64,000 bases of DNA, taken from the NCBI RefSeq assembly GCF_000378045.1, contig NZ_KB899091.1, positions 1 through 64,000 on the forward strand, read 5' to 3'. The notes under the pieces were generated by a model. It made no database searches, was not told the origin of the DNA, and worked only from the letters and a program-made list of their open reading frames with translations. The stretch comes from Marinobacterium rhizophilum DSM 18822 (GTDB lineage Bacteria; Pseudomonadota; Gammaproteobacteria; Pseudomonadales; Balneatricaceae). Shown piece by piece: positions 26,166 through 58,136 of the stretch. A program made the translations under genes and the position numbers. Every line of letters starts with the position of its first letter. Position 1 is the stretch's first letter.

Positions 26166-26169
26166 CATG

Positions 26170-38622: not shown

Positions 38623-38719
38623 GTTATTACCCTTTTGTTGTTGGCTCCGGGTGCTGCCCTGCAGCGACCCGGCAATTTCAGTTTGGCGTAAAAGTCGTGA
38701 CGGTGGTTGCGATCTGGTA

Positions 38720-40150
38720 TCAGTTCGGGTCGCGCACCACCAGCAACCGCAGTTCGGTCATATCCTCAATGGCGTAGCGCACGCCTTCGCGGCCCAGGCC
38801 ACTGTCCTTCACACCACCGTAGGGCATGTGATCGACGCGCCAGGACGGCACATCGCCGATCACCACGCCACCGACTTCCAGCTCATTCCAGGCTTTCTGA
38901 ATCTTGTAGATATCGCGGGTGAAGATGCCGGCCTGCAGGCCGAAATCGGAGTTGTTCACCTCGGCCAGCGCCTCGTCGAAATCGCTGAAACGCGACAGGA
39001 TCGCCACAGGGCCGAACGCCTCCTGGGTGTTGACGTCGAGCTCTGGAGAGACGTTCTCCAGCAGCGTCGCCTGCAGCATGGCGCCGTCGCGCTCGCCGCC
39101 GGCCAGCAGGGTAGCGCCCTGCTCCAGCGCATCGGTGACCCAGCCGTGCAGACGCGCAGCTTCCTTCTCGGAGATCATCGGCCCGATGAACGTCGACTCG
39201 TCGTGCGGGTCGCCGGATTTCAGTGCCCTGACCGCGTCGGTCAGACGCTCGCGCACGGCGTCATAGAGGGACTCGTGCACCAGTATCCGCTGCACGCTGA
39301 TGCAGCTCTGGCCCGACTGATAGTAGGCGCCGAAGACGATTCGCTTGACGGCGTCTTCGATATCTGTGCCCTCATCCACGACGCAGGCGGCGTTGCCGCC
39401 CAGCTCCAACACCACCGGCTTTTTCCCGGCCCGGGCCTTGAGCTGCCAGCCCACTTCCGGGGAACCCGTGAAGCTCAGCAGCTTGAGGCGCTCATCGGTG
39501 GTGAAGAGATCGGCGCCGTCACGGTGACAGGGCAGAATCGAGAAAGCGCCTTTGGGCAGATCGGTCTCCGCCAGTATCTCACCGATGATCAGCGCACCGA
39601 TCGGCGTCAGGCTGGCGGGTTTGAGCACGAAGGGACAGCCCGCGGCCAGCGCCGGCGCGACCTTGTGCGCAGCCAGGTTGAGCGGAAAGTTGAACGGCGA
39701 AATAAAGGAACAGGGTCCGATCGGTACCCGCTTCCACATACCGGTGTAACCTTCCGCACGGGGGCTGATGTCCATCGGCACCACTTCACCGCCGATGCGC
39801 ACCGACTCTTCGGCGGCGATACGGAAGGTATCGATCAGCCGGGTCACCTCGCCCCTGGCATCCTTGATCGGCTTGCCCGCCTCGATACAGAGGGCTTCGG
39901 CCAGTTCATCGAAGCGCTCCTCGAAGCGCTTTACACAATGATTCAGGATCGCCTGGCGCTTGTAAGCCGGAAGCTTGCGCATCGGCTCCGTCGCCTCGAC
40001 TGCCGCCGCGATGGCCCGGTCGATCGCATCCACGTCGGCCAGGGCAACGCGGGTCGCGACCTCGCCGCTGTACTTGTCGACAACCGCCAGGTCCTGGTTG
40101 GGCGCTTCGGCAACGTTGGCCAGGAAGTAGGGATAGCTGGATTTAAGCAT
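38720..40150 (-). CDS. Aldehyde dehydrogenase, hpa-linked (possible succinate semialdehyde dehydrogenase)
   Basis: 476 aa. NAD(P)-dependent ALDH with PFNFPLNLAAHKVAPALAAG, the Glu region VVLELGGNAACVV and catalytic Cys in YYQSGQSCISVQR. It is distinct from HpaE, which is encoded at 44870. HpaI releases succinic semialdehyde and pyruvate, and no other enzyme for succinic semialdehyde is present, so oxidation to succinate is the likely role. The subgroup also resembles lactaldehyde, phosphonoacetaldehyde and sulfoacetaldehyde dehydrogenases. The ATG at 40150 is preferred over an upstream extension. A TTAATATATTAA operator lies in the 150-bp gap before it. Confidence 0.78.
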   Translation of the reverse strand: MLKSSYPYFLANVAEAPNQDLAVVDKYSGEVATRVALADVDAIDRAIAAAVEATEPMRKLPAYKRQAILNHCVKRFEERFDELAEALCIEAGKPIKDARGEVTRLIDTFRIAAEESVRIGGEVVPMDISPRAEGYTGMWKRVPIGPCSFISPFNFPLNLAAHKVAPALAAGCPFVLKPASLTPIGALIIGEILAETDLPKGAFSILPCHRDGADLFTTDERLKLLSFTGSPEVGWQLKARAGKKPVVLELGGNAACVVDEGTDIEDAVKRIVFGAYYQSGQSCISVQRILVHESLYDAVRERLTDAVRALKSGDPHDESTFIGPMISEKEAARLHGWVTDALEQGATLLAGGERDGAMLQATLLENVSPELDVNTQEAFGPVAILSRFSDFDEALAEVNNSDFGLQAGIFTRDIYKIQKAWNELEVGGVVIGDVPSWRVDHMPYGGVKDSGLGREGVRYAIEDMTELRLLVVRDPN

Positions 40151-40216
40151 TGAAGTCGGTCTCCGCCTGTGGGTCCCGGATGTACCAGGCGTCCGCTGCA
40201 CCTGATACCGATCACC

Positions 40217-40240
40217 ACTTAATTAATATATTAACTATAT
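40217..40240. promoter_or_regulatory. HpaR-type operator upstream of ALDH-hpaD
   Basis: The palindrome TTAATATATTAA (40223-40234) lies in the hpaR-ALDH gap. The same core occurs three more times near hpaF and hpaH. This suggests that ALDH-hpaD has its own regulated promoter. Confidence 0.6.
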
Positions 40241-40300
40241 GCCTGTAACGACACCGGCGGGATAACCTGTCCCCCGCCGGAGCGCTTCAGCGCCTCAATT

Positions 40301-40723: not shown

Positions 40724-40809
40724 GGGTACGGAAGTTCCTGTCTCATTACAAGCGGGTGTCGCCTGAATTATCGGACAACCGCCGCCGTCGACAAAGCCAT
40801 TCCTGTCAT

Positions 40810-41202
40810 TCATCGCTCACCGCCGGCAAAGAGCGGATGAATGTTGTTCTTGTTGAACTTGAGCACCGGATCGAGTTCCGTCATCTCGAAGGAGATCTGG
40901 CAGTAGCCGTTATCTGTAATCGGCTTCATCCAGTCACAGAGGATCTCGAATACCCTGCCGGCGACCCGCTGCTTGAGCTCCATATCGCGCCCGTGACCGA
41001 TTTTCAGGTTGAGATTCAGGAACGCGAACCCTTCGCGCCCGTCCGCAACCCGGAAGTCGTCACAGCGGATAGCGCGGCTGCGCACCCCGCCAATCGGGAA
41101 GGCGCCTGTAGACACCACGTACTCGTGCAGCGCCTTGAACAGCGACTGGAACTCCAGCTTCTGGTGCAGGTTACCCGAGTATTCAACAACAAAGTGCGGC
41201 AT
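40810..41202 (-). CDS. hpaF: 5-carboxymethyl-2-hydroxymuconate delta-isomerase
   Basis: 130 aa, a tautomerase-like CHMI family protein. Pro follows the initiator Met (MPHFVVEYSGNL), which is the catalytic base after Met removal. IRCDDFRVADG and FLNLNLKIGHGR are further family blocks. It isomerises the product of HpaE before decarboxylation by HpaG. It is the first gene of the minus-strand hpa operon and reads away from the shared control region at 41277-41572. Confidence 0.93.
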   Translation of the reverse strand: MPHFVVEYSGNLHQKLEFQSLFKALHEYVVSTGAFPIGGVRSRAIRCDDFRVADGREGFAFLNLNLKIGHGRDMELKQRVAGRVFEILCDWMKPITDNGYCQISFEMTELDPVLKFNKNNIHPLFAGGER

Positions 41203-41673: not shown

Positions 41674-42477
41674 ATGCTAAATAAAGAACAAATCGCCATC
41701 GCGGCCGATCGTCTGTACGCGGCCGAAACCGGCCGCCAGCAGATCCCGGCCCTTACGCTCGACTACCCGCAGATGGACATGGCAGACGCCTACACCATCC
41801 AGAAGCAGTGGGTCGACCGCAAGGTCGACGAGGGCCGCACCGTCAAGGGCTACAAGATCGGTCTCACATCCCGTGCGATGCAGATGGCCGTCAATATCGA
41901 CGAGCCCGATTACGGCGTGCTGCTGGACGACATGTTCTTCGAGGACGGCGCCACCCTGAACGCCGCGGACTTTCTCGATCCGCGTATCGAGGTCGAACTG
42001 GCCTTCGTGCTGAAAAAGCCGCTGTTCGGCGAAAACGTCTCGGTCATCGACGTCCTCAACGCCACCGACTATGTGGTGCCCGCGCTCGAGCTGATCGCCG
42101 CGCGCTGCCAGCGCACCAATCCGGAGACCGGCTACACCCGCAAGGTGTTCGACACCATCGCCGATAACGCCGCCAACGCCGGCGTCATCCTGGGCGGACG
42201 CCCGATCCGGCCGACCGATATCGACCTGCGCTGGGCCGGCGCCCTGCTATACCTTAACGGCCAGATCGAGGAGACCGGCATCGCCGCCGGCGTGCTCGGC
42301 CATCCGGCCAAGGGAATCAGCTGGGTCTGCAAGCGCTTTGCACCGCACGGTATTGGCCTGGAGCCTGGCCAGGTAATCCTGGCGGGATCCTTCACCCGTC
42401 CCGTTCCGATCAAGGCCGGCGATACCGTGCACGCCGATTACGGCCCGCTCGGCGGCATCGCGATCAACTTCGCCTGA
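41674..42477 (+). CDS. hpaH: 2-oxo-hept-4-ene-1,7-dioate hydratase
   Basis: 267 aa, a member of the hydratase/decarboxylase branch of the FAH superfamily. Blocks are [54 protein letters not shown] (metal-binding Glu residues) and [14 protein letters not shown]. It adds water to the 2-oxo-heptenedioate made by HpaG, giving the substrate of HpaI. It is the first gene of the plus-strand hpa operon. Confidence 0.94.
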
Positions 42478-42506
42478 AACAGACACCGAATCCAGGAGAA
42501 ACCTTG

Positions 42507-43313: not shown

Positions 43314-43348
43314 ATAATACGACAGGACTTACTTCAAGAGTGAATGAC

Positions 43349-44017: not shown

Positions 44018-44020
44018 GCC

Positions 44021-44803: not shown

Positions 44804-44869
44804 GAACAAGACCCGTCCCGGGCACCGAGCCAAGGCCTTGCCGGGATCAGACAGAACGGGAGAGAAACA

Positions 44870-46592: not shown

Positions 46593-47381
46593 ATGGTAAA
46601 GTCGATACGCGCGCTCTCCCGCGGGCTCGAGGTGGTCCAGGCGCTGCAGCTGCTGTCACCGGCATCGCTGGAAGACCTTCACCGCACCACAGGACTCGCC
46701 AAGGCCACGCTACTTAGAATCCTTCAGACGTTGCAGGAATCGAACTGGGTCTACCGCCGTCTCGGCGACGATCGCTACCGCCTGTCCTATAACCTGCAGC
46801 AGTTGTCCGACAGCATCATATCCCAGGACGCGCTGGCCCAGATCGCCGCGCCGGTGCTCGCTCGACTGCAGAAGGAGGTCCAGTGGCCTTCGGAGCTTTT
46901 CGTGCGCAAGGGCCTTAAGCTGGAAATCATCGAAACGACCCGTACCCAGTCCCCGTTCCTGATCAACCGGGTTGCTATCGGTCTCCAGACAAGCGTTATC
47001 TGGTCGGGGGTCGGACGCGCCTATCTCTCGTTCTGTTCCGACACCGAGCGAAACGAAATCCTCGAACGCCTAGCCCTGGCCGACACGGACGAAAGCCCCT
47101 ACGCCCGCGACCATACCTGGATCGACCGGCTGGTGCAGGAAACGCGTGCGCGGGGATATGGTGTGCGTGAGCCGCACTGGTGGGGACACAGCGTCGACTA
47201 CGGCGGCTACCTGAACGCCATAGCCGTACCGGTGTTCGCCGAGGAAAGGCTGCGGGCCTGTATCAGTATCGTCTGGCTGGAAAATGCGGTGGACGAGGAG
47301 ATCATCGGGCAGAAATTCTATCCGGCACTCTGTGCCGCTGCCACGGAACTCGGGGCGCGACTGGAACAGGAGCTGTATTGA
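46593..47381 (+). CDS. IclR-family transcriptional regulator
   Basis: 262 aa. N-terminal winged helix (RALSRGLEVVQALQLLSPASLEDLHRTTGLAKATLLRILQTLQESNWVYR) followed by the IclR effector domain (ETTRTQSPFLINRVAIGLQTSVIWSGVGRAYLSF, YGVREPHW, AIAVPVF). The pattern resembles MhpR-like IclR activators of aromatic catabolism. It lies between the hpa operon and the convergent kinase/phospholyase/TTT cluster, so it is the likely regulator of the latter. Confidence 0.9.
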   Translation: MVKSIRALSRGLEVVQALQLLSPASLEDLHRTTGLAKATLLRILQTLQESNWVYRRLGDDRYRLSYNLQQLSDSIISQDALAQIAAPVLARLQKEVQWPSELFVRKGLKLEIIETTRTQSPFLINRVAIGLQTSVIWSGVGRAYLSFCSDTERNEILERLALADTDESPYARDHTWIDRLVQETRARGYGVREPHWWGHSVDYGGYLNAIAVPVFAEERLRACISIVWLENAVDEEIIGQKFYPALCAAATELGARLEQELY

Positions 47382-47420
47382 ACGGGCTCCGCCAGCGGCC
47401 CGGAGGTTGCTCCCGACCGG

Positions 47421-48494
47421 TCAGAGCCCGAACGGCAGCCGCCTGGGATCCGTCAGCCAGGCCTCGGCCAACTCGCAGGCGACAGCCGTCAGCTGCCCAG
47501 AGCGTTCGCGGGCGGTATCGGTATCCGGGCGGTCACCGATCCAGCCGAGATAGCTGCATGCGCGTGCAACGATGAACATCGGCAGATGGCGAAGCTGCTC
47601 ATCGGCCAGCGGACGGTTCTGGCGATAACCATCGAGCAAGGCGTCGAATGCCGCGCACCGATAAGGCTGCTCGCGGATCGCGAACAACGCGGTCGCGATC
47701 TCAAACAGATGCCAGCCGAAGCCCGCATCGTCGAAGTCGATCAGACGCACGGCATCGCCGTCGACGATCAGGTTGTCCGGAACCAAGTCCGCATGGATCA
47801 GGCTGAACAGCTGGTTATTGGCCGAATCTGCGGCGTATTCCGACAACCGTAGCCAGAGTTGTTCCCGGACCCGTCGCAGCAACGCGGCCTGATCCGGCGT
47901 ATGCGTCTCCAGCGACCAGAAAGGTCCCCAGAACGGCCGCTCGCCAGCTAACCCCTCGGCATCCCAGCAGTGGCGCCGGAATTCACCCGGTGGCAGCCAG
48001 CCGGTGGCCTGATTGTGAATCCGGGCGGCCAGCCCGCCTAGGTTCCGGTACAGACGGACAGCCTGCGCAGTGTCTCGGGCCAGCCGAGGTTCCATAGCGC
48101 GTAACGGTTCTCCGTCGACCCACTCGAACAGATCGGCCGGCCAAATCCGACCTTCGGAGTTGGCAGTCCGGGCCATCAGGCCACCCGACCGGGTTGGTAT
48201 CACGGCCGGTATTCCAAGCCCCTGAGCGTTGAGTGCGGCAATCCACCGCAACTCCGAGCGCAACGCATCGTCTCCGTGATAGCCAGGCCGGTGCAGACGC
48301 AGCGCATACTTCCGGCCACCCGCACAGCCCACTCGGAACACCGCGTTTTCCCGGTACTTGACCAGCGTCAGCACATCGTACGTCAACGACCATTCGGTCA
48401 TCGCAGCCGCGGCGAGCTGGCAAAGTCTGGCTTCGTCGACCGGCATTTCCAGAGCGGCATCGTTCGCGGGCCACATCGGCTTTGCCCGGCTCAT
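47421..48494 (-). CDS. APH-family small-molecule kinase (amino-alcohol kinase candidate)
   Basis: 357 aa. Aminoglycoside-phosphotransferase/choline-kinase fold: YRENAVFRV and KYALRLHRPGYHG in the N-lobe, catalytic loop LIHADLVPDNLIVDG, and metal-binding DFDDAGFGWHLFEIA. Such kinases phosphorylate hydroxyl groups of small amines (choline, ethanolamine, hydroxylysine, homoserine). Its start overlaps the stop of the class III PLP enzyme by 4 nt (ATGA), which points to a shared pathway: phosphorylation of a beta-hydroxy amine followed by PLP-dependent loss of ammonia and phosphate. It is not a typical antibiotic-resistance gene in this setting. Confidence 0.8.
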   Translation of the reverse strand: MSRAKPMWPANDAALEMPVDEARLCQLAAAAMTEWSLTYDVLTLVKYRENAVFRVGCAGGRKYALRLHRPGYHGDDALRSELRWIAALNAQGLGIPAVIPTRSGGLMARTANSEGRIWPADLFEWVDGEPLRAMEPRLARDTAQAVRLYRNLGGLAARIHNQATGWLPPGEFRRHCWDAEGLAGERPFWGPFWSLETHTPDQAALLRRVREQLWLRLSEYAADSANNQLFSLIHADLVPDNLIVDGDAVRLIDFDDAGFGWHLFEIATALFAIREQPYRCAAFDALLDGYRQNRPLADEQLRHLPMFIVARACSYLGWIGDRPDTDTARERSGQLTAVACELAEAWLTDPRRLPFGL

Positions 48495-49780
48495 GCCTGC
48501 ACCGTCGCCAGTGCCTGGTCCAGTTTGTCCAGCAGCAGGTCGGCATGTCCGGTCGCAAACGGCAACGGCGGGCGGATCTTCAGCACAGTGCCGTGCGGAC
48601 CGGTTTTACTGATCAGGACCCCGTGCTCGCGCAGCCAGTTGATCACCTGCAGCGTCTTCTCCGGCGCCGGCGCCCTGCTCGCCCGGTCGCCGACCAGCTC
48701 GACCGCGAGGAAAAGCCCCTTCTGACGTACCTCGCCGATCAGTTCATGGTGCTGCTGCAATTCGCGCAACCCGGCCGCCAGGTACGCCCCGACCCGGGTC
48801 GCATTGTCCAGCAGCGCCTCCTCTTCCAGCACATCGAGCACGGACATACCCACCGCGCAAGAGACAGGATTGCCGCCGAAAGTGTTGAAGTAACGTGCCA
48901 CACGGCCAAACTCCTCAATCAGATCGGCGCGGGCGACGACGCCGGACACCGGATGGCCATTGCCCATCGGTTTGCCCATCGTCACGATGTCCGGCACCAG
49001 CCCGTCGTACCACTGATGACTCCACATATGGCGGCCGGTGCGCCCAAAACCACCCTGCACTTCGTCGGCGATAAAGAGCCCGCCGGTGGCGCGGACCTTT
49101 TCGACCGCCTTCGCCATGAAACCGGGTGGCGCATTGAGCAGCCCCTCGTTGGCGAACTCCGGACACAGCAGCATCCCCGCCAGCCGAATACCATCAGCCT
49201 CAAACGCCGCAATCGCGTCGGCGACCCTGTCGGCGTAGGCGTCGGCGAGCGCCTCGCCCTGGAGCCCTGATAGCGCCCGGTAGCTGTCCGGCGCCGGTAT
49301 CGAGCGCACGTGCCTTGTACGGGCCGCCTCCGGCATGAAGGCCGTGCCGAGTTCGGCCACCGCTGTGGTGTTGCCGTGATAGGCGCTGTCGGTAACAATC
49401 ATGCCCATCCCGCCGGTACAGTGGCGCGCCATGCGTAAAGCGATTTCATTGGCCTCACTGCCGGTACAGGCGAACATAGCCATCGACAGCGAAGGAGCGA
49501 AGGTGGCGGTCAGCCGCTCGGCATAGTCGAGTATATGGTTGTGCAGATAGCGGGTATGGGTGTTGAGTCGCGCCGCCTGTTCGCTCAGCGCCGCGACGAC
49601 CTTTGGATGACAGTGACCGACCACCGGAACGTTGTTGTATGCATCCAGGTAGCGGTTGCCATCGGCGTCGTACAGCCACACACCACTACCGCGCACCAGG
49701 TGCAACGGCTGCTGATAAAACAGCGGCGTCCCTCTGCCGAGCAGGCGGAAGCGACGCTGCAACAGGAATTCGGTATTCAC
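48491..49780 (-). CDS. Class III PLP enzyme, phospholyase-like (AGXT2L/ethanolamine-phosphate phospholyase type)
   Basis: 429 aa. Fold-type I class III aminotransferase family with GVWLYDADGNRYLDAYNNVPVVGHCHPKV, TGSEANEIALRMAR, ADEVQGGFGRTG and the PLP Lys in DIVTMGKPMGNGHPVSGV. The last block is close to the form found in phospholyases that act on phosphoethanolamine or 5-phosphohydroxylysine, where the enzyme releases ammonia and phosphate to give an aldehyde. The overlapping APH-type kinase gene supports that reading over a simple transaminase. The start codon is GTG at 49780. Confidence 0.75.
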   Translation of the reverse strand: MNTEFLLQRRFRLLGRGTPLFYQQPLHLVRGSGVWLYDADGNRYLDAYNNVPVVGHCHPKVVAALSEQAARLNTHTRYLHNHILDYAERLTATFAPSLSMAMFACTGSEANEIALRMARHCTGGMGMIVTDSAYHGNTTAVAELGTAFMPEAARTRHVRSIPAPDSYRALSGLQGEALADAYADRVADAIAAFEADGIRLAGMLLCPEFANEGLLNAPPGFMAKAVEKVRATGGLFIADEVQGGFGRTGRHMWSHQWYDGLVPDIVTMGKPMGNGHPVSGVVARADLIEEFGRVARYFNTFGGNPVSCAVGMSVLDVLEEEALLDNATRVGAYLAAGLRELQQHHELIGEVRQKGLFLAVELVGDRASRAPAPEKTLQVINWLREHGVLISKTGPHGTVLKIRPPLPFATGHADLLLDKLDQALATVQA

Positions 49781-49876
49781 AATGGGCTCACTCGCTGAAG
49801 GGGTTGCGGATCCGCGCCGTGCAGATCCGGCTTCAAACAGGATGACGACTGACGACGGGCGCTGCCGGCCGTGGCA

Positions 49877-51436
49877 TCAGGCCGAGACTTTGGACTCAGG
49901 TTGCGGCTTTTTTCGCGATAGCTTCCCGATCAACGCCGAGCCGATGATCCAGACTAGGATCAGGGCCAGGATCGAAAACACGGCCAGTGAAATCGGGCGC
50001 TCGAGGAAGATCAGCAGCGACCCATCACTGATGCTGAGGCTCTGGCGCAGACGATTTTCGATGATCGGACCGAGCACCATGCCCAGTATCAGCGGCACCA
50101 CGGGCAGTCCAAGACGACGGGCACTGTAACCGAACAGGCCGCAGGCCAGCGCTATCCAGACATCGGACATCGACAGGTTTAGCGAATAGGCACCGACGAA
50201 AGCCAGCGACAGGATGGTCACACCGAGCACCAGCGGGTTGATCCGCGTCATGACACCGGCCCAGCGCGACAGTGACAGCAGGAACACGAAGATGAAGGCG
50301 TTTATGACCAGCATCGAGGCATAGATGCCGTTGATAAGGTCCGGGCTCTGTTCGAACAGCCGAGGGCCCGGAAAGATGTTGTGGACCTGGAACACGCCTA
50401 TCATCATCGCCGTCAGGGCTTCGCCCGGAATCCCCAATGCCAGCAGCGGCACCAGGGCGGCTCCGGTCACGGCATTATTGGCGGTTTCGGAGGCGATCAG
50501 ACCCTCCGGGTTCCCCTTGCCGAAGGTCTCAGGATGACGCGACGCCCGTTTGGCGGCGATGTAGGAGAGGAACTGTGCCAGGAATTCGCCCACGCCCGGC
50601 AGCACGCCAATGCCGACCCCGAACGCGCTAGAGCGCAACAGGGTGCGGGGGTGACGGAAAACTTCCTTGACGCCATCCCAGTCGACGCCGGCCGATGCCT
50701 GACTGTCCGGGATTTCTTCCCGATTCGTTGCCTCGGCATCCCGCCGGGCCATCAGTGCCGACTCGATAAGAATCAGAGCCTGGGCGATGGCGAAGATACC
50801 GAGCACCACCGGCACCAGCTGGATGCCGTTGAGCAGCGCGCTGCTGCCGAAGGTGTAGCGTGGCATCCCGGTCGCACCGCCGAGGCCAACGGTGCTGAAG
50901 AACAGCCCGATGCCGAGCATCATGCCGGTCGCCAGCATCTGCCCGCGGTGCGCGATCACAACCAGTGCGAGCCCGAGCAGCGTCACCGCGGTGAATTCGA
51001 CCGCACCGAAATTCTTCGCCACGTTCGCCAGCATGCCGGCAGACACCACCAGCACCATGACGCTAACCATGCCACCTACCAGGGACGAGGTGAAAGCGAT
51101 ACTCAGTGCCCGCTTCGCCAGCCCCTGGCGTGCCATCGGGTAACCGTCGTAGGTGGTCAGCACCGCCACCGGCGTCCCGGGGGTATTGATCAGAATCGCC
51201 GGTATCGAGCCCGAATACCAGGCACCGCAATAGATACCGAGCAACAGCGACAGTCCCGCCAGAGGCTCCATGCTGAAGGTTGCCGGCAGCAGCACGGCGA
51301 TCGCGACCGCAGGCCCGAGGCCCGGAACGGCGCCGATAACAACGCCCAGAATACTGCCCGACAGCAGGCAGAGGATTACGGACAGATGCATTATCTCGCC
51401 GAATCCACTGGACAGGTTTGCCAGTAACAATTCCAC
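49877..51436 (-). CDS. tctA: Tripartite tricarboxylate transporter large permease TctA
   Basis: 519 aa with about 12 hydrophobic helices. TctA blocks are GVVIGAVPGLGPAVAIAVLLPATF, GIYCGAWYSGSIPAILINTPGTP, GIGVLPGVGEFLAQFLSY and IASETANNAVTGAALVPLLALGIPG. It is the transport channel of a TTT system for carboxylated substrates. GTG start at 51436 with a GGGGTGAG site. It is separated from tctB by 288 bp that hold palindromic repeat copy 4, which may lower its expression relative to tctC-tctB. Confidence 0.94.
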   Translation of the reverse strand: MELLLANLSSGFGEIMHLSVILCLLSGSILGVVIGAVPGLGPAVAIAVLLPATFSMEPLAGLSLLLGIYCGAWYSGSIPAILINTPGTPVAVLTTYDGYPMARQGLAKRALSIAFTSSLVGGMVSVMVLVVSAGMLANVAKNFGAVEFTAVTLLGLALVVIAHRGQMLATGMMLGIGLFFSTVGLGGATGMPRYTFGSSALLNGIQLVPVVLGIFAIAQALILIESALMARRDAEATNREEIPDSQASAGVDWDGVKEVFRHPRTLLRSSAFGVGIGVLPGVGEFLAQFLSYIAAKRASRHPETFGKGNPEGLIASETANNAVTGAALVPLLALGIPGEALTAMMIGVFQVHNIFPGPRLFEQSPDLINGIYASMLVINAFIFVFLLSLSRWAGVMTRINPLVLGVTILSLAFVGAYSLNLSMSDVWIALACGLFGYSARRLGLPVVPLILGMVLGPIIENRLRQSLSISDGSLLIFLERPISLAVFSILALILVWIIGSALIGKLSRKKPQPESKVSA

Positions 51437-51489
51437 AACTTCTCACCCCGCTAAAAAGATGCCTATTTATTCGTATTGTTATTAATCTC

Positions 51490-51690
51490 GCGCACAAATA
51501 GGTTCCCTGCCTTTTTGTACGTTATATACAGGAAGTACTGTATACCGCGTACGCATGGAAGCGTATGGGCGGCCACGCCACAACAGTGGGCGCAGGTGCG
51601 CGGACATGCCGATTTTGGTGGCGTTCGCATTGGCCTGCGGCCAATGATGAAACATCCCTGTTTCATGTATTAACCCGCCGGGTTAATACA
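51490..51690 (+). repeat. Composite palindromic repeat, copy 4
   Basis: It has the same module order as copy 1: ACAAATAGG region, GCGTACGC, GGGCGCAGGTGCGCGGA, CATTGGCC-tgc-GGCCAATG, TGAAACA-tccc-TGTTTCA and an extended perfect palindrome centred on TTAACCCGCCGGGTTAA. It sits between tctB and tctA, inside one transporter operon. Confidence 0.82.
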
Positions 51691-51724
51691 CACGCGAAGA
51701 CTGGCTATGGAAAATCGATCTATT

Positions 51725-52219
51725 TCAGTCATGCTGCCCGAAAACGGTCGAGATCCAGGGCTCGGGGAACCAGACGTCCATGCCCCAGACGAACAGCCCA
51801 TACAGGCACAGTGGAATCAGCAGCGCGACGATCACCAGTTTGAGTCCCCGGACGCCGACCAGCGCCAGCGCCGCCAGCACGAAGAGCTGGGTCGACAGGT
51901 AATAGCCAAGCCAGTCGATCGACAGCACATAGAGCCCGAACGCACCGAGCAAGCCGAATGCCAGCCCCAGGCGCGGCTTAGATTCGTCGCAATCCATGTC
52001 CAGACCGAATTTGACGTTGCGCAGGGCCTGCACCGCTACCAGCAGTCCACAGATCGCGATCACGCTCAGTGCGATGGTCGGAAAGAACAGCGGCGACTTG
52101 TAAACGGGCAGACCCGTCATGCGACTATCGACCAACCGGTCTCCGTTCCAGATAAAGACAATGGCAATCAGGCTGAAGGTCGCGGCGAATATCGCCCGGC
52201 ACGTCCGGATACTGATCAT
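51725..52219 (-). CDS. tctB: Tripartite tricarboxylate transporter small permease TctB
   Basis: 164 aa with four hydrophobic segments (about 7-25, 42-62, 82-105, 110-150), as expected for TctB. The ATG at 52219 has a GGGAGG ribosome site and is preferred to the GTG at 52225. It is 54 bp after tctC. It is the small membrane partner of TctA. Confidence 0.88.
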   Translation of the reverse strand: MISIRTCRAIFAATFSLIAIVFIWNGDRLVDSRMTGLPVYKSPLFFPTIALSVIAICGLLVAVQALRNVKFGLDMDCDESKPRLGLAFGLLGAFGLYVLSIDWLGYYLSTQLFVLAALALVGVRGLKLVIVALLIPLCLYGLFVWGMDVWFPEPWISTVFGQHD

Positions 52220-52273
52220 GGTCACCTCCCGCTAGAATGCGGACGCCCGCTCCGTAGGGCGGGCGCCCGTGCG

Positions 52274-53224
52274 TTACTGCAAGCCCAGTTTGTCGATGAG
52301 CTGCTTGAACTGATCCGCTTCCTGGTGCATCTGCTCCGTCGTCTCACCGGCGCCGAGGAAGTAGACATGCGCACCGCTGCTCTTGGCGTAGGCCTGGATA
52401 TCGTCCTGCTGCAAGGCATGCTGAAATGCCGCGCTGATTTTCTCAAGCGCCGCATCCGGGACGTTCTTCGGCCCGAACAGACCGGCCCAGATCGAGGCGT
52501 CCTGACCATAGACTTCCTTGAAGGTCGGCACCTGCGGCAGGATAGAGATACGCTGGTTGGTCATCGCCAGGATCGCCTTGGCATTCTCGTCCTGCACCAC
52601 ACCGTTCGCCTCGGGCAAGGTGATCACATCGGCATCGCCGGTGGACAGGGTCAGCGTATTGACCGGATCCAGCGAAATATCGCGGGAAAAGTCGAAGCCT
52701 TCTTTCTCGGCTGCCAGGCGCGCGACCAGTGACGGCACGGCCAGCCGGGCGAAGCCCCCCAGGGTCACGGTCTTGCCGCTCTTGACGTATTCGGCGAGTT
52801 CATGAACGCTGTTGTACGGCTCGTCGCTGCGGGTCGCCAGCACGAAGGGATAATCCAGGAACAGGCCGACCGGCTGGAAATCGTCGAGTCCATAGGTGGT
52901 ATTGTCCATGACGACCTGGGTGATCGCCGGCCCCTGGGTCAGGATTCCGAAGGTATAACCGTCCGGCCGCGAGCTGGCCAGTGCCGAGGCGCCCACCACG
53001 CCGCCGCCGCCGGTGCGGTTAATCACCTTGACCGGCACACCGAGCGCCTCCGACATGTGTTCGGCCGCCTTGCGCATGATGATGTCTTCCGAGTCGCCGG
53101 GCGCCCATGGATTGATGATCTGAATCCGCCGCTCCGGATATTCGGCCTGCGCCACCGACGACAGTCCAACGGTCGCCGCAACGGCCAACAGCATCACTTG
53201 CATTACAGTCTTGATAGTTTTCAT
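52274..53224 (-). CDS. tctC: Tripartite tricarboxylate transporter binding protein TctC
   Basis: 316 aa. Signal peptide MKTIKTVMQVMLLAVAATVG to a probable AQA cleavage site, so the mature protein is periplasmic. Family blocks are YPERRIQIINPWAPGDSEDIIMR, VKVINRTGGGGVVGASALASSRPDGYT and DNTTYGLDDFQPVGL. It delivers the substrate to TctAB. It is the first transporter gene of the minus-strand group, 93 bp after the transaminase gene. Confidence 0.93.
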   Translation of the reverse strand: MKTIKTVMQVMLLAVAATVGLSSVAQAEYPERRIQIINPWAPGDSEDIIMRKAAEHMSEALGVPVKVINRTGGGGVVGASALASSRPDGYTFGILTQGPAITQVVMDNTTYGLDDFQPVGLFLDYPFVLATRSDEPYNSVHELAEYVKSGKTVTLGGFARLAVPSLVARLAAEKEGFDFSRDISLDPVNTLTLSTGDADVITLPEANGVVQDENAKAILAMTNQRISILPQVPTFKEVYGQDASIWAGLFGPKNVPDAALEKISAAFQHALQQDDIQAYAKSSGAHVYFLGAGETTEQMHQEADQFKQLIDKLGLQ

Positions 53225-53317
53225 CTAACTCTCCAGGTCTTCTTATTGCTTTATTATCAGCCTGATTCGCCGGCTTGCCGGCGAATGGGTTGGGTTGGCG
53301 TCCGTGCCCTGATCACA

Positions 53318-54697
53318 TCACTGCCCTTCATCTACCCAGCGCTGCGTACGATCCAACGCCGTCGCCGTCATCTCGATCATCCGGTCGATCTCGTTACGGC
53401 TGATGATCAGCGGTGGCGCGAACGCCAGGGTCTCGCCGGCGATCGGCCGGATCATCAGCCCCTCATCCTGCGCGGCCTGCGCAGCGAAACCAGCAACTTT
53501 TTGCGGCACGTCGAACGGCGCACGCGTCGCCTTGTCCCGCACCAGTTCGAGGCCGGCCAGCATGCCGACGCCGCGCACGTCGCCGACCAGTGGATGGTCC
53601 GCGAATTCGTTCAGCCGCTGCAGCATGTAGGCACCGTTTTCCTGCACCTGTGCCAGGATATTGCGCTCCTCGTACAGCTTCAGGGTTTCCAGCGCCACGG
53701 CGGCGCAAACCGGATGGCCGCCGTAGGTATAACCATGGGCGAACATGCCTACCTTGTCGGTCTGGGCCTTCATTGACGCGTAAATCGTTTCGGAAATCAG
53801 CACCGCGGAGATCGGCAGATAGGAGGAAGACAGCGCCTTGGCACAGGTGATCAGGTCGGGCTGCATCTGCTGGCTTTGGGTGCCCCACATGGTACCGGTT
53901 CGACCGAAGCCGCAGATCACCTCGTCGGCGATCAGCAGGATATCGTGGCGCTTGAGCACACGCTGGATCTTGTCGAAATAGGTCGCCGGCGGAATCACCA
54001 CGCCACCCACACCCATCACCGGCTCGGCGAAGAACGCCGCGATGGTTTCGGGTCCTTCCCGCAGAATCATCTGCTCCAGGTTGTCAGCCAGCCGGGTCGC
54101 GAAATCTTCCTCGGTCTCGCCCGCCTCGGCGAAGCGGTAATAGTGCGGGCAGTCGGTATGGAGAACCCAGTCCAGGGGCAGGTTAAACTCCATATGGAAA
54201 TGGGGCAGCCCGGTGACACCTGCCGTTACTACACCGGTGCCGTGATAGCCGCGGGCCCGGCCGATGACCTTGACCTTGCGATCGTTGCCACGGGCGCGGT
54301 GGTGATACCAGGCCAGCTTGATGGCGGTATCGTTCGCTTCTGTGCCGGAGCACTGGAACAGCACCTTGGACATCGGCACCGGCGCAATTTCGATCAGCTT
54401 CTCGGCCAGTTCGATGGCCGGCTGGCTCGAGCGGTGGGCGAAATTCTGACAGAACGGCAGGGTATTAAGCTGGCGGGTCGCCGCCTCGACCAGGCGCGGC
54501 TCGCTGAACCCCAGCGAGGTGCACCAGAGCCCGGAAACGCCCTCGATATACCGCTTGCCGCTGTCGTCGACAATGTAGACCCCTTCCCCGCGCTCGATGA
54601 TCGACGGGCCCACCTGCTCGTGCAGACGGAAATTGGTATGCGGGTGGATCACGTACGCAATGTCTTTGTCTTTGTTCGATTCCGGCTTGTTGTTCAT
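53318..54697 (-). CDS. Class III omega-aminotransferase
   Basis: 459 aa. PLP-dependent class III aminotransferase with GVYIVDDSGKRYIEGVSGLWCTSLGF, CSGTEANDTAIKLAWY, FAEPVMGVGGVV, LLIADEVICGFGRTGTMWG and the PLP Lys in LITCAKALSSSYLPISAVLIS. It resembles pyruvate-dependent omega-transaminases that act on putrescine, taurine/beta-alanine or aryl-alkylamines. It converts a primary amine to an aldehyde. The following ALDH gene (toward higher coordinates, same strand, 35 bp) would oxidise that aldehyde. ATG with an AGAGGAA site. Confidence 0.88.
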   Translation of the reverse strand: MNNKPESNKDKDIAYVIHPHTNFRLHEQVGPSIIERGEGVYIVDDSGKRYIEGVSGLWCTSLGFSEPRLVEAATRQLNTLPFCQNFAHRSSQPAIELAEKLIEIAPVPMSKVLFQCSGTEANDTAIKLAWYHHRARGNDRKVKVIGRARGYHGTGVVTAGVTGLPHFHMEFNLPLDWVLHTDCPHYYRFAEAGETEEDFATRLADNLEQMILREGPETIAAFFAEPVMGVGGVVIPPATYFDKIQRVLKRHDILLIADEVICGFGRTGTMWGTQSQQMQPDLITCAKALSSSYLPISAVLISETIYASMKAQTDKVGMFAHGYTYGGHPVCAAVALETLKLYEERNILAQVQENGAYMLQRLNEFADHPLVGDVRGVGMLAGLELVRDKATRAPFDVPQKVAGFAAQAAQDEGLMIRPIAGETLAFAPPLIISRNEIDRMIEMTATALDRTQRWVDEGQ

Positions 54698-54732
54698 CTC
54701 AGTATTTCCTCTTATTGTTCAGGCGGGACCGC

Positions 54733-56259
54733 TCAGGCCAGTCGCATCATTACCGATTTAGTTTCCAGATAGGCGTCGATTGATGCCTTGCCGAGTTCGC
54801 GGCCGATACCGGAAGCCTTGACGCCGCCGAACGGCAGATTCGGATCGAGAACGTTGTGGCAGTTGATCCAGAAGATACCGGCCTCGACACGCTCGGCCAT
54901 GCGGTGGGCAACGGCGAGGTCGCGGGTCCAGACGCTGCCCGCCAGCCCATAGCGCGAATCGTTCGCCAGCGCGATCGCCTCCTCCTCGGTATCGAACGGC
55001 ATGGCCGTCAGCACCGGACCGAAGATTTCCTCGCATACCACACGCGAGCGGTTGTCGACGTCGACCAGCACCGCCGGGCTGACGTAATACCCCGGCCGGT
55101 CGAGCCGTTCGCCGCCGGTCAGCACCCGGGCACCTTCGCTGCGGCCGATCTCGACATAGCGGCAGACGCGCTGGGCCTGCTCTTCCGAGACCAGCGGACC
55201 GATCCGGGTCGCGCTATCATGGCCCGGCCCCACGGTGAGTTGCGCCGCGTGGTCGGCGATGCCGCGGGTGACCTCATCGAAGATGGAACGATGGATATAG
55301 AGCCGGGAGCCGGCGGTGCAGACCTGGCCCTGGTTGTAGAAAATGGCGTTGGCCGCGCCCTGAACGGCCTGCTCGACAGGCATGTCCGGCATCACGATCA
55401 TCGGCGACTTACCGCCGAGTTCGAGCGTGAATCGCTTCATACTCTCGACCGCGCTCTTACCAATCAGCTTGCCGGTCTCGACTGAACCGGTGAAGGTGAC
55501 CTTGTCGACAGCGGGATGTTCGACGAGCGCTGCACCGGCCTGAGCGCCCAGACCTGTCACTACATTGAGCACGCCGGCGGGATACCCCGCCTCGCGCACC
55601 AGCTCGCCCAGACGCAGAGCCGTCAGCGAGGTCTGTTCGGCGGGCTTGAGTACCACCGTGCAGCCCGTCGCCAGGGCCGGTGCCACTTTCCAGATCGCCA
55701 TCATGAGCGGGAAATTCCACGGCACAATCGCCGCAACGACACCGACCGGGCGCGGTTTGGTGTAGGCGAAGAACTTGCCGTCCGGCAGGCGCGGAACCGA
55801 AACATCCAGTGTCTCGCCACTGATCTTGGTGGCCCAGCCCGCCATGTAGCGCACGAATTCGATGGTGCCATTGAGATCCGCCATACGGGCAGCGGCGGCG
55901 ACTTTGCCGTTGTCTATTGACTCCAGTTCCGCCAGCTCATCGGCATGCCGCTCGATCAAATCGGCTAGTTGCAGCAACAGCTTCTGTCGCGCGGTGGGTT
56001 TCATGTCCGCCCAGGCCGGATCGCGAAACGCCTGCCGGGCAGCTTCCACCGCTCGATCGATATCGGTTTCGTCGGCCAAGGCGATGCGCGTGATTTCCTG
56101 GCCGGTCGACGGATCGAGCACCGCCAGCGTATGGCCTGCAGCCGCATCGACCCAGGAATCGCCGATTAGCATTTTCTGCTGGCGGGTCAGAAACGAACGG
56201 TGCTTTTCTACTAGAGGGTTATGTGAAACGGCCAAAGCCTCGACTCCTTCAGGACCCAT
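54733..56259 (-). CDS. Aldehyde dehydrogenase, phenylacetaldehyde dehydrogenase-like
   Basis: 508 aa. NAD-dependent ALDH with VVAAIVPWNFPLMMAIWKVAPALATG, TLELGGKSPMIV and FYNQGQVCTAGSRLYIH holding the catalytic Cys. The FNQGQVC block, the ISGETLDVSVP segment and the C-terminal NVLDPNLPFGGVKASGIGRE resemble FeaB/StyD-type phenylacetaldehyde dehydrogenases, though betaine-aldehyde-type enzymes are also close. The expected product is an aryl acetate, here possibly dihydroxyphenylacetate for HpaD. The ATG at 56259 has no clear ribosome site; a TTG at codon 9 follows AAGGAG and may be the real start. Confidence 0.82.
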   Translation of the reverse strand: MGPEGVEALAVSHNPLVEKHRSFLTRQQKMLIGDSWVDAAAGHTLAVLDPSTGQEITRIALADETDIDRAVEAARQAFRDPAWADMKPTARQKLLLQLADLIERHADELAELESIDNGKVAAAARMADLNGTIEFVRYMAGWATKISGETLDVSVPRLPDGKFFAYTKPRPVGVVAAIVPWNFPLMMAIWKVAPALATGCTVVLKPAEQTSLTALRLGELVREAGYPAGVLNVVTGLGAQAGAALVEHPAVDKVTFTGSVETGKLIGKSAVESMKRFTLELGGKSPMIVMPDMPVEQAVQGAANAIFYNQGQVCTAGSRLYIHRSIFDEVTRGIADHAAQLTVGPGHDSATRIGPLVSEEQAQRVCRYVEIGRSEGARVLTGGERLDRPGYYVSPAVLVDVDNRSRVVCEEIFGPVLTAMPFDTEEEAIALANDSRYGLAGSVWTRDLAVAHRMAERVEAGIFWINCHNVLDPNLPFGGVKASGIGRELGKASIDAYLETKSVMMRLA

Positions 56260-56385
56260 TGCATTTATTATCGAACCGGCTTTCCGGGGTCACTCGGACC
56301 GGTTCCTGCGTCAAATCGACAGGGTCACAACAATCAGACCCATCGCCTATCTCGTCGTTGCACTCTAGGCAGTTAAATCGAGGCA

Positions 56386-56424
56386 CACAATCCTGAGTTT
56401 CACCTAGTGCAACTCAGGATTGTG
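56386..56424. promoter_or_regulatory. 14-bp inverted repeat between ALDH and sulfatase genes
   Basis: CACAATCCTGAGTT and AACTCAGGATTGTG form a perfect inverted repeat with an 11-nt centre that contains a TTTCAC half site. There is no T-run, and the flanking genes diverge, so an operator is more likely than a terminator. Confidence 0.5.
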
Positions 56425-56561
56425 TTTACGGCTTCAGAATTTAAAGTATCGATAAGCATCGGACCGGTTGCCGCAGTAGGCTTGGCCCGAATTAGGAATC
56501 AATGATCGCTGTATCGAAGGTGTCCTGAAAAGCAGCGTTCTGTGGTCAGAGAGAGTGACTT

Positions 56562-58136
56562 ATGACGAAGCCCCGCAACATTCTGTTCATCATGGCGGAT
56601 CAGTTAAGAGCCGATTATCTGGGGTGCAACGGTCATCCGACGATTCGCACCCCCAATATCGATAACCTCGCCGCCCGAGGTGTCAATTTCACCCGCGCCT
56701 ACTGCCAGGCGCCGGTCTGCGGTCCGTCGCGTATGTCCTTCTATACCGGTCGTTACGCCTTTACCCATGGCGCCAGCTATAACAACGTGCCGTTGCGGAT
56801 CAGCGAACTGACCATTGGCGATTTCCTGCGTCCGCAGGGATATCGCGTCGCTGTCGTCGGCAAGACCCATATGAAAGAGGACACCGAAGGCATGCAGCGC
56901 CTGGGTATCGATCCGCAGTCCTCGCGGGGCGTCCTGCTCAGCCAGTGTGGCTTCGAACCCTTCGAACGGGATGACGGCCTGCACCCGGACCAGTCCGCCA
57001 ATCCGGACCTGCCCTACAACCTTTATCTGCGCGAGCAGGGATACGACAGTCCGAACCCCTGGCACGACTTCGCCAATTCGGTCGAAGGTCCGGACGGCGA
57101 GGTCCTCAGCGGCTGGAAGATGCGTCACTGCAACCGCCCGGCCCGGGTCCGGGAAGAGCACTCGGAAACCGCCTACACTACGGACCGGGCAATCGACTTC
57201 ATTCACGAGACCGGCGACCAGCCCTGGTGCCTGCATCTGAGCTACATCAAGCCGCACTGGCCCTACATCGCACCCTCGCCCTACCACGACATGTACAGCG
57301 AAGCGGATATCCTGCCGGCCAAACGCTCAGAGGCGGAACTGGACCAGCCGCACCCGGTCATTGAGGCCTTCATGCAGCACGATGAGTCCCGCAACTTCCG
57401 CCGCGACGAGGTACGTGAGCGGGTGATTCCGGCCTATATGGGTCTCATCAGCCAGCTGGATCATCATATCGGTCGGCTGATGGATTTCCTCGAGGCGCGG
57501 GGGCAACTGGACAATACTCTGATCGTGCTGACCGCTGACCACGGCGACTACCTGGGCGATCACTGGTTGGGCGAAAAGGAACTGTTTCACGAGCCGAGCG
57601 TGCGTATCCCGTTGATCGTCGTCGAGCCGGACCGATGCGCCGACGCAACCCGGGGCTCACGCAGTCACAGGCTGGTCGAATCTATCGACCTGGTACCGAC
57701 TTTCCTTGAGGTTGCCGGTGGCCAGCCCGCGCCTCACATCCTCGAAGGACGCTCCCTGATGCCACTCGTCACGGGTGAAACGATCAGCCACTGGCGCGAG
57801 TACGCCTTCAGCGAAGCTGACTATGCCTGGCGTCATGCACGCAAGCACCTGAATCTCGCGCCGGATGAAACACGGGTGTTCATGGTGACGAACGAACGCT
57901 GGAAATACGTGCACTACGAACACTTCCAGCCCCAGCTGTTCGATCTGCAGAACGACCCGAGCGAGCTGCACGACCTCGGCAGCGACCCAGCATTCCGGGA
58001 TACCCGCCGTCAGATGGCCGATGCCCTTGGCCGCTGGCTGCGTACCCGGCGCTTGCGGACCACGATCAGCGACGACGACGTCGCCACCCGCACCGGCACC
58101 GCCCATGACAGGGGGTATCTATTTGGGGTTTGGTAA
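56562..58136 (+). CDS. Sulfatase/phosphonate monoester hydrolase family enzyme
   Basis: 524 aa of the alkaline-phosphatase superfamily. FIMADQLRADYLGC supplies the first metal site. Cys53 in PVCGPSRMSFYTGR is the residue normally turned into formylglycine. HLSYIKPHWPYIAPSPYHDMY and VLTADHGDYLGDHWLGEKELFHEPSVRIPL are further metal and substrate blocks. The C-terminal tail resembles phosphonate monoester hydrolases, which also cleave sulfate esters. There is no signal peptide, so it acts in the cytoplasm. It needs a formylglycine-generating enzyme, not present in the window. It is divergent from the ALDH-transaminase-TTT group and may release the pathway substrate from a sulfate or phosphate ester. 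Confidence 0.88.
   Translation: MTKPRNILFIMADQLRADYLGCNGHPTIRTPNIDNLAARGVNFTRAYCQAPVCGPSRMSFYTGRYAFTHGASYNNVPLRISELTIGDFLRPQGYRVAVVGKTHMKEDTEGMQRLGIDPQSSRGVLLSQCGFEPFERDDGLHPDQSANPDLPYNLYLREQGYDSPNPWHDFANSVEGPDGEVLSGWKMRHCNRPARVREEHSETAYTTDRAIDFIHETGDQPWCLHLSYIKPHWPYIAPSPYHDMYSEADILPAKRSEAELDQPHPVIEAFMQHDESRNFRRDEVRERVIPAYMGLISQLDHHIGRLMDFLEARGQLDNTLIVLTADHGDYLGDHWLGEKELFHEPSVRIPLIVVEPDRCADATRGSRSHRLVESIDLVPTFLEVAGGQPAPHILEGRSLMPLVTGETISHWREYAFSEADYAWRHARKHLNLAPDETRVFMVTNERWKYVHYEHFQPQLFDLQNDPSELHDLGSDPAFRDTRRQMADALGRWLRTRRLRTTISDDDVATRTGTAHDRGYLFGVW

What the first reader, a model, noticed from the sequence alone, without database searches (positions are those of the whole stretch)
46593..58136. 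Possible catecholamine/phenylethanolamine feeder pathway next to the hpa cluster
Seen: APH-type kinase overlapping a class III PLP enzyme by 4 nt, omega-transaminase, phenylacetaldehyde-dehydrogenase-like ALDH, sulfatase/PMH, TTT importer and IclR regulator, directly beside complete homoprotocatechuate meta-cleavage genes. Known: kinase plus AGXT2L-type phospholyase pairs turn beta-hydroxy amines into aldehydes via the phosphate ester; transaminases turn arylethylamines into arylacetaldehydes. Inference: noradrenaline/octopamine-type amines enter through kinase and lyase, dopamine/tyramine-type amines through the transaminase, sulfate esters through the sulfatase, and all meet at the ALDH to give (di)hydroxyphenylacetate.
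Basis: partly seen in the sequence, partly recalled or inferred. Interest (0 to 1): 0.78.

Follow-up and report, generated by a model that had tools for sequence, protein, structure and literature searches.

The report
Kinase-lyase entry route for aromatic neuroamines
Beside a bacterium's genes for breaking the ring of dihydroxyphenylacetate sits a kinase-lyase gene pair that probably turns octopamine- or noradrenaline-like amines into the aldehyde feeding that pathway; the same pairing recurs in distant bacteria, but no enzyme has been assayed.

Summary
The class III enzyme (48491-49780) belongs to the phospholyase branch (best solved relatives: phospholyase A1RDF1 and human ethanolamine-phosphate phospho-lyase). 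The kinase overlapping it by 4 nt has a microcompartment aminopropanol kinase as closest solved relative. In a tree of 116 lyases, 20 of 77 clade members, but 0 of 39 outside, have two or more homoprotocatechuate genes within about 10 kb, in alpha- and gammaproteobacteria and with two unrelated HpaD types. Some clade loci carry a tyrosine/DOPA-type decarboxylase, a TTQ amine dehydrogenase or FeaR. Best explanation: phosphorylation, then PLP elimination, converts beta-hydroxy-arylethylamines to arylacetaldehyde; a phenylacetaldehyde-dehydrogenase-like enzyme and hpa finish the job. The transaminase-TTT block looks like a separate module. The sulfatase is not a conserved part. No HpaB-2 or full C2-type hydroxylase was found in this genome, so catechol amines are likelier here unless another hydroxylase serves. 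Substrates are inferred only.

The parts
47421..48494 (-). APH-type small-molecule kinase (proposed: phosphorylates the beta-hydroxyl of aryl-ethanolamines)
   Evidence: PF01636 97.7 bits; closest solved sequence 6ef6, 137.5 bits, which Foldseek also ranks first for the model, titled microcompartment-associated aminopropanol kinase; H234, D236, N241, D253 invariant in 17 of 17 aligned kinases
48491..49780 (-). class III PLP lyase of the phospholyase branch (proposed: eliminates phosphate and ammonia, leaving arylacetaldehyde); K270 invariant
   Evidence: phmmer 5g4i 408.6 bits, 6tor 363.7, next 195; Foldseek ranks 1-4 are these two; invariant columns in 12 aligned sequences
49877..51436 (-). 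tctA, large membrane subunit of the tripartite tricarboxylate transporter
   Evidence: PF01970 453.6 bits
51725..52219 (-). presumed tctB, small membrane subunit (ATG start; a GTG start would extend it to 52225)
   Evidence: 164-aa frame between tctC and tctA; no family search made
52274..53224 (-). tctC, periplasmic receptor with P-G-D-x-E-D in place of the usual G-G-x-x-D loop
   Evidence: PF03401 128.5 bits; motif
53318..54697 (-). omega-transaminase (proposed: arylethylamines without the beta-hydroxyl)
   Evidence: PRK06105 690 bits over cut-off; best solved 5ghf, 6g4b
54733..56259 (-). phenylacetaldehyde-dehydrogenase-like ALDH (proposed meeting point)
   Evidence: StyD model 703 bits, below cut-off 850; 4o5h 637 bits
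46593..47381 (+). IclR-family regulator
   Evidence: PF01614 and PF09339; PRK09834 model 172 bits, below cut-off 269
37696..38622 (-). hpaD, homoprotocatechuate 2,3-dioxygenase (TIGR02298 type)
   Evidence: 460.9 bits over cut-off
38720..40201 (-). aldehyde dehydrogenase within the hpa cluster (perhaps for succinate semialdehyde, the pathway's end product; inference)
   Evidence: best NCBIfam model lactaldehyde DH 436 bits, the 25 models shown all below cut-off; SSADH 330 bits
40301..40813 (-). hpaR, regulator
   Evidence: TIGR02337 156.7 bits over cut-off
40810..41202 (-). hpaF, CHM isomerase
   Evidence: PRK15031 116 bits, below cut-off 215
41674..42477 (+). hpaH, hydratase
   Evidence: TIGR02312 436 bits
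42504..43313 (+). hpaI, aldolase
   Evidence: TIGR02311 385.7 bits
43340..44017 (+). hpaG N-terminal subunit
   Evidence: TIGR02305 240 bits
44021..44803 (+). hpaG C-terminal subunit
   Evidence: TIGR02303 374.6 bits
44870..46405 (+). hpaE, CHMS dehydrogenase
   Evidence: TIGR02299 801 bits
56562..58136 (+). sulfatase/phosphonate monoester hydrolase family protein, divergent from the operon; probably not a conserved part of the route
   Evidence: 4upi 613 bits; a homologue of at least 40% in only 2 of 77 clade loci, the window included

Best explanation
The kinase (47421-48494) phosphorylates the hydroxyl of a beta-hydroxy-arylethylamine (noradrenaline, octopamine or a close relative). The PLP lyase (48491-49780) forms an aldimine with the amine and eliminates phosphate; the enamine released hydrolyses to ammonia and a (di)hydroxyphenylacetaldehyde. 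The phenylacetaldehyde-dehydrogenase-like ALDH (54733-56259) oxidises this to (di)hydroxyphenylacetate, which the hpa genes cleave to pyruvate and succinate semialdehyde. The omega-transaminase and TTT importer form a second module that probably brings in and deaminates arylethylamines lacking the hydroxyl. Shown here by computation: family placement of each protein, recurrence of the pair with hpa genes, recurrence in fewer loci with other aromatic-amine genes. Inferred: the substrates, the phosphorylation step, what the transporter carries, the regulation by IclR.
For: Lyase lies on the phospholyase branch, 408.6 and 363.7 bits against 195 for the next solved relative. Kinase within 250 nt downstream on the same strand in 71 of 77 clade loci. 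hpaH (TIGR02312 over cut-off) in 17 of 18 genomes, own included, with a lyase of at least 59% identity, against 47 of 175 others, Fisher p 1.9e-8; with the four lower-identity members that the tree puts in the clade, 20 of 22 against 44 of 171, p 3.4e-9; neither corrected for shared ancestry. hpaH-lyase gap under 8 kb in 6 of the 18 and under 36 kb in 10; in the other 8 the two lie on different contigs (positions; sums). At least two hpa marker kinds within about 10 kb in 20 of 77 clade lyases and 0 of 39 others; 10 label changes on the tree, at least 8 forced, 0 of 500 shuffles as low. The hpa genes are not one inherited block: window-type hpaD in 3 of the 20, the unrelated TIGR02295 type in 12, none recognised on the stretch held in 5 (only L078's was run against the models). 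4-HPA hydroxylase homologues (HpaB-2 or C2 type) beside 11 of the 20. Decarboxylase in 5 of 77, whose representative has DOPA decarboxylase 7xin and a tyrosine decarboxylase as best solved relatives; TTQ amine dehydrogenase in 4 of 77, one locus also with FeaR (355.7 bits, cut-off 199), recalled as activator of tyramine/phenylethylamine oxidation. An ALDH at least 37% identical to the window's in 44 of 77 against 1 of 39. Position 211, aligned by eye with the substrate-switch Glu of GABA aminotransferase (recalled), is N in 96% of the clade and S in 39 of 39 others.
Against: No assay, expression or growth data. 57 of 77 clade loci have fewer than two hpa marker kinds within about 10 kb, and 46 of 77 have neither an hpa marker nor the decarboxylase nor a TTQ dehydrogenase there (31 of 77 have at least one), so other substrates in part of the clade are possible. 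None of the 6 congeners has the lyase at E <= 1e-60. TTT receptors with known ligands bind carboxylates (recalled), not amines. A UPF0261 protein is as common beside the pair (28 of 77) as hpa genes are, and this pathway gives it no role. The TTQ subunits match the methylamine dehydrogenase models below their cut-offs, so that they oxidise aromatic amines is itself inferred. The own genome has no HpaB-2 hit and only a 64-bit partial hit to the C2 oxygenase, so octopamine could not be finished by those hydroxylases.
Confidence: 0.68

Rival explanations
1. The pair is an ordinary ethanolamine, hydroxylysine or 1-amino-2-propanol kinase-phospholyase that merely lies beside hpa genes in this genome.
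For: [quoted passage not shown] PMC8233209, whose reference list also names hydroxylysine kinase and ammoniophospholyases acting on 5-phosphohydroxylysine); the kinase's nearest solved relative is the aminopropanol kinase.
Against: Recurrent linkage with hpa genes, 20 of 77 in the clade and 0 of 39 outside. In one Mycolicibacterium a microcompartment locus carries its own kinase (31% to this one) and a distant class III enzyme (27%), about 320 kb from a separate pair of this clade on what is, by its length, the same contig. The window's ALDH is nearest to phenylacetaldehyde dehydrogenase.
Confidence: 0.1
2. The pair does act on aromatic beta-hydroxy amines, but the physiological substrate is another one: phenylethanolamine without ring hydroxyls, N-methylated synephrine or adrenaline after demethylation, or a beta-hydroxylated aromatic amino-acid derivative.
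For: An FAD oxidoreductase related to sarcosine and N-methyltryptophan oxidases lies beside the pair in 6 of 77 loci; most clade loci have no hpa genes within reach.
Against: In the 20 linked loci the ring pathway is the homoprotocatechuate one; other ring pathways were not searched for.
Confidence: 0.15
3. The operon is two pathways side by side: transaminase plus TTT serve one amine, kinase plus lyase another, without a shared aldehyde dehydrogenase.
For: Congener G006 has transaminase (77%), tctC (62%), a tctB-like frame and tctA (77%) on another contig without kinase and lyase; nearby lie an ALDH (54% to one at L044) and a hydratase-like gene (24% to hpaH), and, judged by eye only, an FAD monooxygenase and an IclR regulator.
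Against: Same-strand order ALDH-transaminase-tctCBA-lyase-kinase in the window; a class III transaminase accompanies the pair in 31 of 77 clade loci against 5 of 39.
Confidence: 0.2
4. The lyase removes water and ammonia directly, like PbfA, and the kinase has another task.
For: PbfA, a class III enzyme, does this on a beta-hydroxy aminophosphonate (PMC8154272, passages).
Against: The lyase scores 199 bits on the PbfA model against a 525-bit cut-off and is nearest to the phospholyases; the kinase is next to it in 71 of 77 loci.
Confidence: 0.04

Closest known systems
Ethanolamine-phosphate phospho-lyase and 5-phosphohydroxylysine phospho-lyase with their kinases (ETNPPL/AGXT2L1, PHYKPL; bacterial A1RDF1, PDB 5g4i)
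   Same: Class III PLP fold, nearest relatives by sequence and fold (46-47% identity to A1RDF1, 43% to ETNPPL over the Foldseek alignments); a kinase partner
   Different: Proposed substrate carries an aryl group on the phosphate-bearing carbon; position 211 is N (A1RDF1 T, ETNPPL C) and 255 is H (Y, F); linked to aromatic ring cleavage
1-Amino-2-propanol kinase plus phospholyase of the RMM microcompartment (PDB 6ef6 title seen; the route is recalled)
   Same: Nearest solved kinase; secondary-alcohol amine activated by phosphate and split to an aldehyde
   Different: In the one microcompartment locus examined the class III enzyme is only 27% identical to this lyase
Octopamine and phenethanolamine catabolism of Pseudomonas aeruginosa (octopamine hydrolyase, EC 4.2.1.87; recalled, the 1987 paper is not held)
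   Same: Same overall conversion, beta-hydroxy arylethylamine to arylacetaldehyde, then acid
   Different: Described as a hydro-lyase without phosphate; I recall no gene assigned to it and did not test Pseudomonas aeruginosa here
hpa / homoprotocatechuate meta-cleavage cluster
   Same: Full set of ring-cleavage genes in the window
   Different: An amine entry module next to it instead of a recognised hpaBC
Tyramine and phenylethylamine oxidation (amine oxidase or TTQ dehydrogenase, feaB, feaR; recalled)
   Same: Same aldehyde level, PAD-type ALDH; related genes beside the pair in a few genomes
   Different: Oxidase or dehydrogenase entry; does not use the beta-hydroxyl chemistry proposed here

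Membership tests
PLP phospholyase branch of class III enzymes | Closest solved relatives are characterised phospholyases, not transaminases | tested here: met
   5g4i 408.6 and 6tor 363.7 bits, next 195; Foldseek ranks 1-4
PLP phospholyase branch of class III enzymes | Catalytic lysine and PLP motifs present | tested here: met
   K270, D239, Y134-H135-G136 invariant in 12 sequences; their roles are recalled
PLP phospholyase branch of class III enzymes | Releases phosphate and ammonia from a phospho amino alcohol | not testable with these tools
   needs an assay
APH-fold amino-alcohol kinase | APH domain with HxDxxxxN and DFD motifs | tested here: met
   PF01636 over cut-off; residues invariant in 17 of 17
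APH-fold amino-alcohol kinase | Partner of a phospholyase | tested here: met
   within 250 nt downstream of the lyase in 71 of 77 clade loci
RMM aminopropanol system | Encoded with BMC shell proteins | tested here: inconclusive
   the genes named around the pair in the window belong to other families, but neither window nor own genome was searched for PF00936; of four other genomes with a clade pair searched, one has it, about 320 kb from that pair
Homoprotocatechuate meta-cleavage cluster | hpaD, E, F, G, H, I present together | tested here: met
   hpaF below its cut-off
4-hydroxyphenylacetate degradation | 4-HPA 3-hydroxylase present in the genome | tested here: inconclusive
   HpaB-2 model no hit, C2 model 64 bits partial, HpaB-1 model not searched; a distant oxygenase-reductase pair exists on contig C16, 69% (oxygenase) to one near hpaD in a congener
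PbfA-type ammonia-lyase | Reaches the PbfA model cut-off | tested here: not met
   199 bits against 525

The most novel reading that the evidence does not exclude
This clade of kinase-lyase pairs is a general bacterial route for beta-hydroxylated aromatic neuroamines (octopamine, noradrenaline and kin): activation by phosphate, PLP elimination to the arylacetaldehyde, then homoprotocatechuate cleavage. It occurs beside hpa genes in alpha- and gammaproteobacteria and, without hpa genes on the stretches held, in actinobacteria; it would supply genes for a conversion that I recall from growth and extract studies only, and the G-D-x-E-D type of TTT receptor beside it would be an importer for aromatic amines.
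Probability: 0.45. Interest if true: 0.82.

Novelty: new variant of a known kind. Interest (0 to 1): 0.68.

Why it matters
If true, it adds an aromatic substrate class to the kinase-phospholyase route, gives candidate genes for bacterial use of octopamine and noradrenaline (signals of animals), and makes a decades-old growth phenotype (recalled) testable at gene level. The clade signature (N211, H255) offers a first handle for annotating phospholyases by substrate.

Tried and rejected
Sulfatase as a fixed part of the route: rejected, a homologue of at least 40% lies near the lyase in 2 of 77 clade loci including the window (a further 48% fragment at the end of L049 was too short to count). Chance neighbourhood: rejected, 0 of 39 outside the clade. 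Aminopropanol microcompartment: weakened for this clade from one genome only. DmdA-like genes left of hpaD as O-demethylases feeding homoprotocatechuate: considered, nothing beyond nearness speaks for it. TctC loop as proof of amine transport: kept as a hint only. Of 26 receptor hits near the lyase, 24 have G-D-x-E-D (22 genomes), one (L079, 28% identical) has the ordinary G-G-x-x-D, and one (L033) gave no alignment over the loop. Rows dropped before counting in the tree: L051, L054, L055 (same genomes as L031, L042, L045) and L150 (too short); L149 has no lyase. Paper searches (listings seen; two searches returned nothing) showed no listed title or abstract opening on a kinase-phospholyase route for aromatic amines; PMC8154272, PMC8233209, PMC10537072, PMC3390384 and PMC5897657 were seen as passages only.

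Full report
Observation. On the minus strand the order is ALDH (54733-56259), omega-transaminase (53318-54697), tctC (52274-53224), presumed tctB (51725-52219), tctA (49877-51436), PLP lyase (48491-49780), kinase (47421-48494), the last two overlapping by the 4 nt ATGA. The IclR gene 46593-47381 runs towards the kinase. hpaE-G2-G1-I-H lie at 41674-46405 and hpaF, hpaR, an ALDH and hpaD at 37696-41202; all hpa genes except hpaF pass their curated cut-offs. A divergent sulfatase follows at 56562-58136.

What the two key proteins are. The class III enzyme is about twice as similar in bits to two phospholyases (A1RDF1, 5g4i, 408.6; human ETNPPL, 6tor, 363.7) as to the next solved relative (195), and a 12-sequence AlphaFold model (mean pLDDT 84) ranks the same two first in the PDB. 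The kinase has an intact APH catalytic core; its nearest solved relative by sequence and by fold is a microcompartment-associated aminopropanol kinase. 1-Amino-2-propanol is a secondary-alcohol amine, so phosphorylation and elimination at the carbon that would carry the ring in octopamine has a direct chemical precedent (recalled).

Is the neighbourhood more than chance? Of 193 genomes, own included, 18 carry a lyase of at least 59% identity (17 full, one partial). hpaH passes its cut-off in 17 of these 18 (the other, G062, has a partial match of 305 bits) and in 47 of the 175 others (Fisher p 1.9e-8). Four more genomes have lyases of 52-54% that the tree puts in the same clade; with them the count is 20 of 22 against 44 of 171 (p 3.4e-9). 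Ancestry is not corrected for in either. The gap between hpaH and lyase is 6.0-7.6 kb in 6 of the 18 and 26-36 kb in 4 more; in the other 8 the two are on different contigs (positions). Paralogous lyases of 44-49% identity serve as control: in the two single-contig genomes among them that have hpaH over its cut-off (G011, G071), lyase and hpaH are more than 1.1 Mb apart, circle taken into account.

Wider survey. With the loci from relatives, 116 distinct lyases went into a tree. 'Linked' means at least two kinds of hpa marker within about 10 kb, called by BLAST thresholds that I set. The label needs 10 changes, at least 8 forced, against a shuffled mean of 18.8. The hpa genes themselves differ (window-type hpaD in 3, TIGR02295-type in 12, none recognised on the stretch held in 5), so this is not one block inherited whole. 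Eleven of the 20 also have a 4-hydroxyphenylacetate hydroxylase homologue; the two representatives scored 751 bits on HpaB-2 (cut-off 885) and 736 on the C2 model (cut-off 650).

Other aromatic-amine genes. Some clade loci carry a decarboxylase, whose representative (L103) has DOPA and tyrosine decarboxylases as best solved relatives (5 of 77 at 60% or more to it; a further partial one in L110; two others, L061 and L064, only 29-30%). A TTQ amine dehydrogenase lies in 4 of 77, in L060 only as part of the large subunit; its subunits match the methylamine dehydrogenase families but stay below the NCBIfam cut-offs. In Pseudomonas akapageensis (L076) it stands with FeaR and an ALDH 51% identical to the window's. 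An ALDH at least 37% identical to the window's is near the lyase in 44 of 77 against 1 of 39. On the other side of the ledger, 46 of 77 clade loci show none of hpa marker, decarboxylase or TTQ dehydrogenase within reach, so the clade may hold other specificities.

Sequence hints of specificity. Three positions separate the clade from its sisters: 211 (N in 96%; S in 39 of 39), 212 (E in all; D in 34 of 39) and 255 (H in 87%; F in 39 of 39). By motif alignment done by eye, 211 corresponds to Glu211 of E. coli GABA aminotransferase, a substrate-switch residue (recalled). Of 25 readable TctC receptors near the lyase, 24 have P-G-D-x-E-D where ordinary receptors have G-G-x-x-D; the exception is L079. 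Of 29 receptors elsewhere, 27 have G-G. An acidic loop would suit a cationic ligand; this is inference, and two receptors with such a loop (L182, L183) have no lyase beside them.

Modules. Among 57 genomes searched with the transaminase at E <= 1e-150, only the congener G006 besides the own genome matches (77%); there it stands with tctC, a tctB-like frame and tctA on another contig, without kinase and lyase, near an ALDH and a hydratase-like gene and, judged by eye, an FAD monooxygenase and an IclR gene. G006's hpa cluster is 92-98% identical to the window's but is followed by what looks like a TRAP receptor. The window's cluster thus looks assembled from hpa, transaminase-TTT and kinase-lyase modules.

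Which substrate in this strain? The HpaB-2 model has no match in the genome and the C2 oxygenase model only a 64-bit partial one; HpaB-1 was not searched. A distant oxygenase-reductase pair on contig C16 is related (oxygenase 69%, reductase 56%) to a pair near hpaD in G006 and could be an unrecognised hydroxylase. Unless it is, catechol amines such as noradrenaline and dopamine fit this strain better than octopamine and tyramine.

Mechanism and rivals. The favoured mechanism is phosphorylation of the beta-hydroxyl, PLP-dependent elimination of phosphate with loss of ammonia, oxidation of the arylacetaldehyde and ring cleavage. Family placements and linkage are computed; substrates are inferred. 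The aliphatic-substrate rival is weakened by a Mycolicibacterium that keeps a clade pair about 320 kb from its own microcompartment locus, whose kinase is 31% and class III enzyme 27% identical to ours. The PbfA-like rival is weakened by the model score (199 against 525) and by the constant company of the kinase (71 of 77).

Organism.

Verdict. Observation confirmed; interpretation partly supported and, for the kinase-lyase-hpa core, considerably strengthened. It is a new variant of the known kinase-phospholyase kind. No paper describing it was seen in the listings of the ten searches made, which cover open-licence PMC only.

Noticed in passing
window 51440-51720: The gap between tctB and tctA is a dispersed repeat: 65 matches in the own genome at E <= 0.01, the query itself included (best others 82% over about 200 bases), with a perfect 12-nt hairpin at 51666-51690; in a congener the gap is about 66 bases.
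   Followed up: partly
L090:6704-7960 and homologues: A UPF0261 protein of unknown role lies beside the kinase-lyase pair in 28 of 77 clade loci and 0 of 39 others.
   Followed up: no
window 23917-35061: Two DmdA-like demethylases (30024-31172, 33913-35061; 386 and 388 bits against a cut-off of 410) with formyl-THF deformylase, FolD and a BCCT transporter, left of hpaD.
   Followed up: no
L189 (G006:C9:52001-72000): Congener cluster: transaminase plus TTT near an ALDH, a hydratase-like gene and, by eye, an FAD monooxygenase and an IclR gene; perhaps another aromatic amine route.
   Followed up: partly
G000:C16:128097-129227 (L151, L158): Acyl-CoA-dehydrogenase-like oxygenase with a flavin reductase and, by eye, an HxlR-like regulator; its 69% homologue lies about 4 kb from hpaD in congener G006; possible unrecognised aromatic hydroxylase.
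   Followed up: partly
L031, L032-L035, L052: An FAD oxidoreductase of the sarcosine/N-methyltryptophan oxidase kind beside the pair in 6 of 77 loci; could demethylate N-methyl amines.
   Followed up: no
L040:10723-11424 and homologues: A LuxR-family regulator lies close to the lyase in 15 of 77 clade loci and 0 of 39 others.
   Followed up: no
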